From Glandiceps talaboti (taxonomy: Eukaryota; Hemichordata; Enteropneusta; Spengelidae), in assembly GCF_964340395.1 (NCBI RefSeq), contig NC_135551.1:24093503-24157502 (forward strand): 64,000 nucleotides of DNA, read 5' to 3'. The notes below the pieces were generated by a model. It searched no databases. It saw only the letters and a program-made list of their open reading frames with translations, and was not told where the DNA came from. The stretch's first letter is position 1, and the number at the start of each line of letters is the position of its first letter. Made by a program: the position numbers and the translations under genes. Positions 5,860-58,700 of this stretch are shown here, piece by piece.

Positions 5860-6740
5860 GAGTAAACAGTGCTGCTAGTTCAATGTACAGTACTGCTACT
5901 GGGGTGTGTTATTCTGGTATTTGTATCTGTATCTGTGTTGATGTTGGCCTGAGTAAACAGTGCTGCTAGTTAAATGTACAGTACAGCTACAGGGGTGTGT
6001 TATCCAGGTATCTGTATCTGTATTGATGTTGGCCTGAGTAAACAGTGCTGCTAGTTCCATGTGCAGTACAGCTACAGTGCTGCATTATTATTTTAACATT
6101 ATCTACATGTTGTTGTTGGTTTGAGTAAAATCTGATGTTTGTTCACTGTTCAGTACTTTTACAGGGCTGTGCTGTCTTAGTAGAAGTGATGTTGTCAGTG
6201 GCCTGCATGAGTAATCCATGTTGTAATCCAATGTGCAGTACTGCTACAGGGGTGTGTTATCCTGGTATCTGAGTTCATGTTGTCCTGAGTAAACAGTGCT
6301 GCTAGTTCCATGTACAGTACTGCTACAGGGGTGTGTTATCTGGTCTCTGTGTTGATGTTGGCCTGAGTAAACAGTGCGGCTAGTTCCAGGTACAGTACCG
6401 CTACAGGGCTGTGTTATCTTAGTATCTATGCTGTTGTTGGTCTGAGTAAACAGTGCTGCTAGTTCCATGTACAGTAAAGCTACAGGTGTGTGTTATCCTG
6501 GTATCTGTATCTGTATCTGTGTTGATGTTGGCCTGAGTAAACAGTGCTGCTAGTTCCATGTACAGTACTGCTACTGGGCTGTGCTATCTTAGTATCTATG
6601 CTGTTGTTGGCCTGAGTAAACAGTGCTGCTAGTTCCATGTACAGTACTGCTACTGGGCTGTGCTATCTTAGTATCTATGCTGTTGTTGGCCTGAGTAAAC
6701 AGTGCTGCTAGTTCCATGTACAGTACCACTAGAAGAATAT
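5860..6740 (-). repeat. 79-bp minisatellite copying the last coding segment and stop codon of CDK8
   Basis: The unit, read on the minus strand, contains the end of the CDK8 reading frame ([18 protein letters not shown] then TAA). The in-frame copy ends at the true stop, 6668-6670; the next copy is 79 bp further at 6589-6591 and repeats the same residues and stop in another frame. The anchor GAGTAAACAGTGCTGCTAG occurs exactly or nearly so at 6693, 6614, 6535, 6444, 6365, 6287, 6036, 5951 and 5860, with more degenerate copies between. Spacing is 78-79 bp where regular. All extra copies are downstream of the stop, so they lie in the 3'UTR. Confidence 0.93.
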
Positions 6741-55700: not shown

Positions 55701-58700
55701 ACAAATTTTGTGAACAGACTGACACCACTCTCTACACTTAACAGTAAATTTACATGTACATGGTTTAATTAAAGTGGCCATATGGATGATGATTGAGTAA
55801 TTTACTTTGGATTTTAATTTACAATTCAGTTTTATCATGGCTTCCTACTTGAAAAATCAATGTGAAACAACATAGACCAAGTCAGTGTTTGTAACTCAAT
55901 ACATTGCTAAAAACTAAAAAATGTGTAAGAAAGTTTGTTAGTTGTACATACATGTTAGTGTACATACAATAACAATCATTTTACAAACTTATTCCATCTT
56001 TTGGCATGTATTGAGTTACAAACATGGACTTGGCATATGTTGTTTCATGTTGATTTTTCAAGAAGGAAGCCATCATGAAATTGTTTTAAAAATTACAAAT
56101 CCAAAATATATACCAAATTCTAATTCATATGACCACTATAAAGGGTCATACAGCTAAAAGGTTTATAGGATATTCTAAGAATTGATGTCTTTTATGATGT
56201 AAATTTAAGTGTTCTCCCCAGCTCTTCACTGGTATATATATTTACATAATCTATTGATATGTAAATTATTCTTATAATATGTAAATGTTTATGCAAATTA
56301 ATTGCCACAGTCTTCACAAGACCAACAGTTTTATCTATTTTGTGCAATTTATGATAATGTTTTACTGTAATTAACTTTTTCATTGACTTCCCAAATCGTG
56401 ATATTAAAGTTCTTGGTATGTACATTTTATCCTGTAAGGTTATGTTTATGTTTGTTGTGATCAAATTTCTGAGTAAGAAGATTGAAGACCGTAAAATGCT
56501 GTTATTGGGTTTCGTCATTGAATTTCTATCTATAGCAGCAGCTCTAGGTTATATGCCAAACTTACCAATAGGTATGTGAAATATTGAAACCATAGCAACT
56601 GCATTAGCATATAAGCCAAACTTACCAAAATGTATGTGAAATATTGAAGCCATAGCAACTGCATTTTAGTATATATGCAAAACACACCAAAAAGTATATG
56701 AAATATTGAAACCATAGCAACACGTTACCATATACAGCAAACACGCAGTAGGTAGGTTTACATATCAAATCTTGAAACTGGTGTCTCAATATGATGCACA
56801 CTCTAAGCATAATAATATCCCACAACTCTTTCTGATTGTTTTGATGCTCAAACATTGATTTCATGTACATAGAATGATTAGAATCTAGCTGATTTGCATA
56901 CAGGTATGCAATAATTTTTTTTTGGTATTGCTCTGCAGTGCCTGTAATCTCTGGTACATATTTTATTGCATGGTGCACAAGGAAAGTGCACTTATCTTTT
57001 GTTGCTTTCAGAAAAAAAGATATAGGTATTGTTTAAAAAATTTTAACGAATAGCAAAAACATTGGAGACATATCAATATAACAGTGTGTTTTTTTAATTC
57101 ATAGTATTCTATACTGCAGACTAAAACTTTGAATACTATATTTTCACCAAGGTCACCCAGCTGGATTGCCAATATTCCTTATTATTTTTGTGGTACAAGT
57201 ATCAGGATTGCCACTGATTGCAGCCTGTGTAGCATCAATGTTTTCAAAACATACTACTGAACGAACACAAGGTAAGACTTTACTTATTCCTGAATGAGAT
57301 ATATAGAAATTCAATTTGTAATATAATTCAAAACAGCATTATTGTTTTTCTTATCTATAAAAAAAAAATTAGTTTCCCGAAAATGATGCAATGTGATATC
57401 CCAAAAAGTGAAAGTGACTTCTCAAGAATAACATTAAAGATAATTAAGAGATTTGACAATAATGCTAACTGTAGGCAAATGATAATTGAACGTAGAAAAA
57501 CAATAATTGTTCTAAGATTTTCAGGTCTTTGAGTAATGGAGATCATTGCAAATTTTTGCTACAGTGCAATTGCTAAAAGAACTATGTATATACAGGACTG
57601 TAGCTAATTATAAAAGTACTCAGTCAAATGTGATAAGTAGGTCTTTACAAGTGAATCTGCCAACTGATGGAACTGTACTGGTTTAAACAAAGAATTTTTT
57701 GTACAGATTCCTGAAAAACAACCAGCTGGCAAAACATTTCAGAGTAGCTTGTTATTTTTGCTGTTTTTAGTGTTTACAATATCTCACATACCATACCATC
57801 ACTCACTGTGTAATCTACCACATGCATCAAAAATAGTTTGACTTTGTGGCTATCCTAGTTTGCCTATGACATTACGTCTGTCGCAATACATGATGGTGAT
57901 ATATAACTAACCTTCATTCAACTTTCAGGATTTTCACAAGGTGTTCGTCGTGGTGTTGCTAATATAGGAACAATTCTAGGCCCACTATGGGCTGGTGGAG
58001 CTATCTCTATGTTATATGTAAACATTGGCGTCATTGTTGGATTAGTGTTCTTTATATTGGTAAGTTATGTATTATCAATCAATCTTAACATACAGCCAAA
58101 TTACTGAAAGCCATTAATTATGCAAATAACATATTAGTATTCATGGAATGTTTAGCAAAACCTCAGTAATCAGTTCTAGCTATTACCCTAAGGAACATGT
58201 GCACCGAATGTTGTTTGAATTAAGGCAGCTGTTTTATCTAAACATCTGTGTCATTGTTGGATCAGTGTTCTTGAAATTGGTAAGTTATGTGTAAAGTGGT
58301 ACAGTTCGTAACTGGGGGTCCTTTTTTGGCAAAAGTCAATGTACCAGTTACAAATACACAATGCACATTAAAACTTATTTCGAAACAATGCTGAGTAAGT
58401 GTGTACAACACAAAAAAAAGGAGAGACAGTGTCCATCAGAAGGTGTCCACCAGATTATGTGTAGATTTTCTTGTACAATTCCTTCAATGTTGTATGGAAG
58501 GAAATGAACAACTAACATATATATGTACAACACAAAAGGGAGTGCTGACCAGAAGGCATTCACCAGATTAGATGTAGATGTACTTATTGTACACTCCTTC
58601 AATGTTGAGGACAAAAAGTTTAACCAATACACACAAAATATTTTGATCAGCTGAGAGCTTTCAACTGCAGTGAGTCTTGTTCACTCTATGATAGATGGCA

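What the first reader, a model, noticed from the sequence alone, without database searches (positions are those of the whole stretch)
5860..58290. Tandem and spaced duplications repeatedly capture exon-intron junctions across three unrelated genes
At least nine junctions are involved: CDK8 exon 2 donor, exon 9 donor and the stop-codon end of exon 13; MMS22L exon 6, 25 and 30 donors and exon 29 acceptor; MFSD8-like exon 8 and 10 donors. In each case one end of the repeat lies inside coding sequence, and the extra copies extend into the intron or 3'UTR, leaving the mature message unchanged. Among 59 complete-gene coding exons this is far more than expected if minisatellites were placed at random. 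It points to a process that starts duplication at junctions, or to selection that removes repeats unless exactly one copy stays in the exon. I recall that minisatellites spanning exon-intron boundaries were described at an amphioxus locus, so the phenomenon may not be wholly new. Its density in one 50 kb window is still notable.
Basis: partly seen in the sequence, partly recalled or inferred. Interest (0 to 1): 0.88.

Follow-up and report, generated by a model that had tools for sequence, protein, structure and literature searches.

The report
Tandem repeats spanning exon-intron junctions
Short stretches straddling exon ends have been copied many times into the adjoining introns in this animal genome, which looks like the "mirage" repeats known from amphioxus genes; they are probably harmless leftovers of random local duplication, and a natural test of how cells choose the right splice site.

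Summary
I rebuilt CDK8 (13 exons), MMS22L (35) and an MFSD8-like gene (11): 59 exons. All nine stated junctions (7 donors, 1 acceptor, 1 stop codon) lie in local duplications, with one copy in the exon and the rest in intron or 3'UTR. All 25 GT-bearing decoy donors and both decoy acceptors tested would truncate the protein.

Within the window the excess is real: 9 of 17 duplications hit a junction against 2.24 expected (rotation P 2e-4), driven by donors (7 vs 1.12), not acceptors (1 vs 1.12). But the window was picked because of it. In 12 other loci of the same 590-Mb genome I counted 7/99 donors and 5/99 acceptors against 4.4% of unique intron positions (p 0.15, 0.45). Junction-spanning repeats thus occur on other chromosomes too, but are not shown to be junction-targeted.

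Best reading: random local duplication, silent where splicing ignores the extra copies. This matches the published amphioxus "mirages" (Adh3, globins, PGBD5). The mitochondrial code points away from amphioxus, probably to a hemichordate, which would extend the known range.

The parts
6668..19076 (-). CDK8 gene, 13 coding exons, 454 aa
20077..43993 (+). MMS22L gene, 35 coding exons, 1240 aa (first exon least certain)
   Evidence: Pfam MMS22L_N and MMS22L_C
46770..59939 (+). MFSD8-like gene, 11 coding exons, 590 aa (first and last exon least certain)
   Evidence: MFS_1 E 3e-30; the name MFSD8 rests on tblastn with a typed human protein
17961..18088 (-). CDK8 exon 2 donor, 61-bp unit x2 (54 exonic + 7 intronic nt, GTAAGCC); junction 18029/18028
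11437..11892 (-). CDK8 exon 9 donor, 64-bp unit x about 7; all 7 copies found carry CTG|GTAAG; junction 11881/11880
5797..6731 (-). CDK8 last exon: end of the coding sequence with stop codon (to 6668) and about 11 copies of about 79 bp, mostly in the 3'UTR
22786..22871 (+). MMS22L exon 5 donor, 19-bp unit x4.5 (13 exonic + GTAAGT); junction after 22798
36268..36571 (+). MMS22L exon 24 donor, spaced duplication 36268-36389 and 36449-36571; junction after 36326; decoy GT lost
38810..39113 (+). MMS22L exon 28 acceptor, about 85-bp unit, 3 upstream copies (2 with intact TTTCTTACAG acceptor); authentic acceptor before 39059
39711..40214 (+). MMS22L exon 29 donor, 37-bp unit x13.6 (30 exonic + GTGAGTT); junction after 39740
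56532..56742 (+). MFSD8-like exon 8 donor, 60-bp unit x3; junction after 56571; decoy donors weakened; shared with the neighbouring paralogue
58010..58290 (+). MFSD8-like exon 10 donor, spaced duplication 58010-58070 and 58230-58290; junction after 58059; shared with the neighbouring paralogue
13666..13996 (-). comparison: 67-bp minisatellite wholly within CDK8 intron 7
50715..50954 (+). comparison: 47-bp minisatellite wholly within MFSD8-like intron 2

Best explanation
This genome often makes small direct local duplications (about 20-130 bp, tandem or spaced by up to a few hundred bp), placed roughly at random along genes. One that straddles a splice junction is silent if the copied unit carries a whole splice signal (at least 6 nt of intron at a donor): the exon then has an intact signal at its own edge and the extra copies, decoy signals included, lie in the intron (or in the 3'UTR at a stop codon). 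The spliceosome keeps using the signal that gives the shortest exon, so the protein is unchanged and the array is free to expand, drift and lose decoy signals. Shown: anatomy, decoy signals, coding consequences of using decoys, occurrence on other chromosomes, presence in a paralogue. Inferred: randomness of placement, splicing choice in cells, expansion mechanism (slippage or unequal exchange, perhaps from short homologies).
For: All nine reported duplications have one copy in the exon, the others in intron or 3'UTR. 25 of 27 decoy donor copies keep GT, and the authentic donor is often no stronger (CDK8 e2, CDK8 e9, MMS22L e29, MFSD8 e10 equal the best decoy; MMS22L e5 and the e28 acceptor are weaker than one; generic splice matrix recalled, not from a call). 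All 25 GT decoy donors and 2 of 2 decoy acceptors tested would truncate the protein, so position, not strength, must decide. Decoy donors differ from the authentic one no more than their flanks do: 21/234 vs 45/584, p 0.57. In 12 other loci junctions are duplicated at 12/198 against 4.4% of unique intron positions (p 0.17). Short matches lie at the breakpoints of ABCB7 (GGACC) and CDK8 exon 2 (GCC). The median of 56 introns is 650 bp; PMC9225289 (abstract read) reports that splice sites closest across the exon are preferred when flanking introns are large. Both MFSD8 duplications are also in a paralogue that is 87-96% identical over its long aligned stretches.
Against: Donors in the window exceed the random expectation 6-fold (7 vs 1.12, P 2e-4), which pure randomness does not predict. 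Outside the window donors are still nominally above acceptors and introns (7.1%, 5.1%, 4.4%). In 4 of 7 donor cases the unit ends only 6-11 nt into the intron (P 0.018 for uniform breakpoints). Intron rates differ widely between loci (0.4% to 10.5%), so pooled p values are rough. No RNA was available, so use of the outermost site rests on protein continuity.
Confidence: 0.72

Rival explanations
1. Donor junctions are true hot spots: something about the 5' splice site (transcription-linked breaks, R-loops, or short homology between GTRAGN and exon sequence) starts tandem duplication there.
For: Window donors 7 vs 1.12 expected while acceptors are at expectation; donors 8/56 vs 1.7% of collapsed intron positions, p 5e-6; 4 of 7 units end 6-11 nt past the donor, and ABCB7 adds a fifth (9 nt).
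Against: Not replicated: 7/99 donors vs 4.4% of introns, p 0.15. The exon copy is held constant by selection, so junction duplications may stay detectable about twice as long; with that bias the window p weakens to 0.026. The pattern was chosen after seeing it.
Confidence: 0.15
2. The arrays are kept because they help the gene, for instance by tuning splicing or NMD through decoy donors.
For: Each decoy tested would give a premature stop, which could serve regulation; the MFSD8 duplications are in two paralogues.
Against: Decoys differ like their flanks; some are lost (MMS22L e24 and e27) or weakened (MFSD8 e8); unrelated genes are involved, and 8 of 17 window duplications touch no junction.
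Confidence: 0.08
3. Assembly or polishing artefact.
For: Long tandem arrays are a common site of assembly error; no reads could be checked.
Against: Units differ by private substitutions; spaced and divergent copies exist; both MFSD8 duplications recur in a separate paralogue; the window arrays are at most about 0.9 kb in an assembly of 47 contigs.
Confidence: 0.03

Closest known systems
"Mirage" minisatellites of amphioxus: Adh3 (Canestro et al. 2002, cited in PMC3087553, not held), globins BflGb6 and BflGb9 (PMC3087553), troponin C and PGBD5 (PMC3902484)
   Same: Tandem repeats spanning a 5' or 3' exon-intron boundary, units 10-160 bp, AG/GT signals repeated in many copies, regular splicing reported undisturbed
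   Different: Here in a genome whose mitochondrial code points to Ambulacraria rather than amphioxus (partly from recall); includes spaced single copies, a stop-codon/3'UTR case and a paralogue that shares two duplications
[quoted passage not shown] potato RdRp case PMC4974935, passages read)
   Same: A duplication that crosses an intron-exon boundary and carries splice signals along
   Different: No new intron is formed here; the extra copies lengthen an existing intron
Ordinary intronic minisatellites
   Same: Similar unit sizes and identities; 8 of 17 window duplications touch no junction
   Different: One copy is coding and carries the authentic splice site or stop codon

Membership tests
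mirage minisatellites | tandem repeat whose unit spans an exon-intron boundary | tested here: met
   6 of the 9 cases are tandem arrays across a splice junction; 2 more are spaced and 1 is at a stop codon
mirage minisatellites | both 5' and 3' exon boundaries can be duplicated | tested here: met
   7 donors and 1 acceptor in the window; 7 of 99 donors and 5 of 99 acceptors in 12 other loci
mirage minisatellites | many copies carry AG/GT splice signals | tested here: met
   25 of 27 decoy donor copies keep GT; 2 of 3 upstream acceptor copies keep AG
mirage minisatellites | regular splicing of the mRNA is not disturbed | not testable with these tools
   no RNA data; unbroken protein models and Pfam matches across the junctions are indirect support
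mirage minisatellites | copy-number instability between haplotypes or somatic cells | not testable with these tools
   one assembly only
mirage minisatellites | host a cephalochordate (known range so far, not part of the anatomy) | tested here: inconclusive
   COX1: no AAA, AGA or AGG codon in the frame read, ATA at 4 sites that I recall as usually Ile, TGA = Trp; nuclear GC3 0.32-0.35. This speaks against amphioxus but no named relative was compared
intron gain by tandem duplication | a new intron with no change of peptide | tested here: not met
   in the models each of the 8 splice-junction duplications lies in one intron that ends at the next exon; no extra intron is needed

The most novel reading that the evidence does not exclude
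In this lineage 5' splice sites are preferred start points of tandem duplication, with the unit cut just past the U1-binding hexamer, so that repeated donors accumulate genome-wide as a by-product of transcription or splicing, and the spliceosome faithfully takes the outermost of up to about 20 near-identical donors.
Probability: 0.13. Interest if true: 0.75.

Novelty: new member of a known kind. Interest (0 to 1): 0.42.

Why it matters
If the range extension holds, junction-spanning repeats are not an amphioxus oddity but a common feature of at least one other (probably ambulacrarian) genome: 12 of 198 junctions sampled outside the window (mostly ab initio exons). Arrays of up to 20 near-identical donors, where only the first fits the protein, are ready-made tests of how splice-site position beats strength. 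They are also raw material for intron gain and a trap for automatic gene annotation.

Tried and rejected
Junction hot spot: strong inside the window but not supported by 12 other loci. Stronger authentic sites: rejected; scores are equal to or below the best decoy at six of the nine sites scored (eight donors including exon 27, one acceptor). Purging of decoys: no faster change at decoy donors in seven donor cases (exon 27 not included, and the exon 24 count is inflated by an indel). Inverted duplications as control: 0 of 15 BLAST rows hit a junction, but rows overlap, most are self-complementary palindromes and two lie outside the gene bodies, so this is a weak control. Mobile units: two arrays searched against the whole genome, each listed only in place, though that tool scores only its best candidates. 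Rfam at gathering threshold: no match. First gene-finder passes chained false exons (26481-26633, 40714-40782 and others); dropped because they lack similarity to the typed human MMS22L. PDB searches with an MMS22L piece (best E 0.26) and an MFSD8 piece (best NorA, E 1.5e-10) gave no ortholog. Unit length modulo 3: looked at, not pursued.

Rows dropped before counts: the 4837-4942 duplication (outside gene bodies) and the late-found exon 27 copy; set B, arrays with period under 15 and two outside gene bodies. In one search one unit (CDK8 e2) was placed 6 nt off and counted as exonic; one search corrects it. The and 35 scores did not require the match to cross the junction; one search does. One search timed out and was rerun. 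One search failed on a file name and was rerun.

Limits of the independent sample: exons are ab initio with Pfam help. Of the genes in the neighbouring 200 kb only three (TROVE-like, ABCB7, PICALM-like) were counted; the MFSD8 paralogue was left out as not independent, and other predicted exons were not used. "TROVE-like" is named by eye, Pfam gave no match for it. One ABCB7 donor was corrected by hand after I had read the array. At Pfam-located myosin exons of seven loci the count is donors 2/40 and acceptors 1/40; one of those donors and that acceptor belong to a 36-nt exon (L029 9495-9530) that is probably false. In the two later stretches one donor and two acceptors at Pfam-located exons are duplicated.

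Full report
Gene models. The window (about 35% GC) holds three complete genes. Pfam agrees with all three: Pkinase E 3.9e-58, MMS22L_N 1.5e-164, MMS22L_C 1.6e-71, MFS_1 3e-30. The first exons of MMS22L and MFSD8, and the last exon of MFSD8, are the least certain.

The nine junctions. TRF and an unaided self-BLAST for direct duplications within 1.5 kb together recover every case. Donors: CDK8 exon 2 (61 bp x2), CDK8 exon 9 (64 bp x about 7), MMS22L exon 5 (19 bp x4.5), MMS22L exon 24 (spaced), MMS22L exon 29 (37 bp x13.6), MFSD8 exon 8 (60 bp x3), MFSD8 exon 10 (spaced). Acceptor: MMS22L exon 28. Stop codon: CDK8 exon 13, about 11 copies, mostly in the 3'UTR. A more degenerate tenth case is at the MMS22L exon 27 donor. 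In each case a single copy overlaps the exon.

More than chance in this window? With arrays collapsed to one unit, the exon pattern was rotated over the gene bodies: 9 of 17 duplications capture a junction against a mean of 2.24 (P 2e-4). Donors are 7 against 1.12, acceptors 1 against 1.12, stop 1 against 0.06. Random placement of units gives 8 of 16 against 2.35 (p 8e-4), or for TRF arrays 7 of 20 against 1.93 (p 0.0015). Cautions: counting positions without collapsing arrays removes the excess (9/112 junctions vs 8.2% of sampled intron positions). The exon copy cannot drift, so such duplications may remain detectable longer; a factor of two in the odds brings p to 0.026 and three to 0.12. 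The window was also selected for this feature.

Independent sample. The window's own genome is held (590 Mb, 47 contigs). One test, which requires the match to cross the junction, was applied to all: window genes 8/56 donors and 1/56 acceptors against 2.5% of collapsed intron positions (p 7.5e-5 for donors); 12 other loci (nine myosin stretches and, in the 200 kb, TROVE-like, ABCB7 and PICALM-like genes) 7/99 donors and 5/99 acceptors against 4.4% (p 0.15 and 0.45). Window and outside donors do not differ significantly (Fisher p 0.16). So junction-spanning duplications occur on several chromosomes, and their rate outside the window is close to that of unique intron sequence. Exon edges in this sample are mostly ab initio; at Pfam-located myosin exons of seven loci the counts are 2/40 donors and 1/40 acceptors, part of them at one doubtful short exon. 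Intron rates range from 0.4% to 10.5% between loci, so the pooled p values are rough.

Two clear outside cases. In ABCB7 (ABC_tran E 1.2e-32; the gene name is mine) the exon ending GVVPQ is followed by a 62-bp array in which the donor motif CCACAG|GTAGGG occurs 20 times including the authentic site; the exon resumes at DSVLFHN. The unit has 53 exonic and 9 intronic nt, and GGACC stands at both breakpoints. In a myosin gene (L026, exon ending 9268, Pfam-located) the donor AAAC|GTAAGT is followed by many shorter copies with similar donors.

Age. A second MFSD8-like gene lies next to the window in reverse orientation, 87-96% identical over its long aligned stretches. It carries both the exon 8 and the exon 10 duplications, so these most likely pre-date the gene duplication. 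Decoy donors at exon 8 are weakened in both genes, and the exon 10 decoy has lost its last exonic G in the paralogue.

Splicing consequences. 25 of 27 decoy donor copies keep GT. Authentic donors are equal to the best decoy in CDK8 exons 2 and 9, MMS22L exon 29 and MFSD8 exon 10, and weaker than one in MMS22L exon 5; the exon 28 acceptor is slightly weaker than its two decoys; in MFSD8 exon 8 and in MMS22L exons 24 and 27 the authentic donor is the strongest. Using any of the 25 decoy donors or 2 decoy acceptors tested would end the protein early (for MFSD8 exon 10 only 13 codons early). Decoy donors differ from the authentic copy about as their flanks do (21/234 vs 45/584, p 0.57). The site used must therefore be set largely by position: the one that gives the shortest exon. 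PMC9225289 (abstract read) reports such a preference when flanking introns are large; here the median intron is 650 bp. This step is inference, as no RNA was seen.

Which animal. COX1 of the mitochondrial contig has no AAA, AGA or AGG codon in the frame read; TGA reads Trp; ATA stands at four sites where other animals, as I recall, mostly have Ile. That is the ambulacrarian pattern as I recall it, not the amphioxus one. Contig C22 still exceeds 20 Mb, in line with the 23 chromosomes of two hemichordates (PMC11175523, passages read). A hemichordate is my best guess, not a proof.

Known precedent. [quoted passage not shown] PMC3902484 (passages read) adds PGBD5 and mentions troponin C. PMC4974935 (passages read) shows an acceptor-spanning duplication that became a new intron in potato. 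The ten paper searches listed no title that reports such repeats in hemichordates, but I saw listings only, some cut short, the library is partial and no query named that group.

Verdict. The suggested junction-seeking process is not supported outside the window; random local duplication with splicing-silent survival is the better account. It is a new set of members, probably in a new lineage, of a known kind.

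Noticed in passing
L003-L004 (C4:24157503-24177502), concatenated 2791-11815, minus strand: A second MFSD8-like gene in reverse orientation directly beyond the window, 87-96% identical over long stretches, sharing both junction duplications
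   Followed up: yes
L014 1160-2500 (C4 near 24268790): ABCB7 donor array: 62-bp unit, 20 occurrences of the donor motif
   Followed up: yes
L003-L022 concatenated 171331-175717: 4.4-kb array of 36/72-bp units, open in one frame (KSELLSGFGQDR repeated), after a PICALM/AP180-like ANTH gene; coding or intronic not settled
   Followed up: partly
window 26543-26747: 65-bp array in MMS22L intron 11, part of which the gene finder takes for an exon with a donor; no counterpart in the typed human protein, probably intronic
   Followed up: partly
window 1-2600, minus strand: Partial secreted lectin-like gene, named by eye (signal peptide MRFFVALLVLASVVMA); lectin-like exons, one with a weak Lectin_C match, lie in the next 200 kb
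   Followed up: no
G000:C40: Mitochondrial contig of 51 kb with three COX1 hits of equal score 15,435 bp apart: apparently assembled as about three head-to-tail copies
   Followed up: partly
window, whole: CpG observed/expected 0.33 with TpG 1.36, strong CpG loss
   Followed up: no
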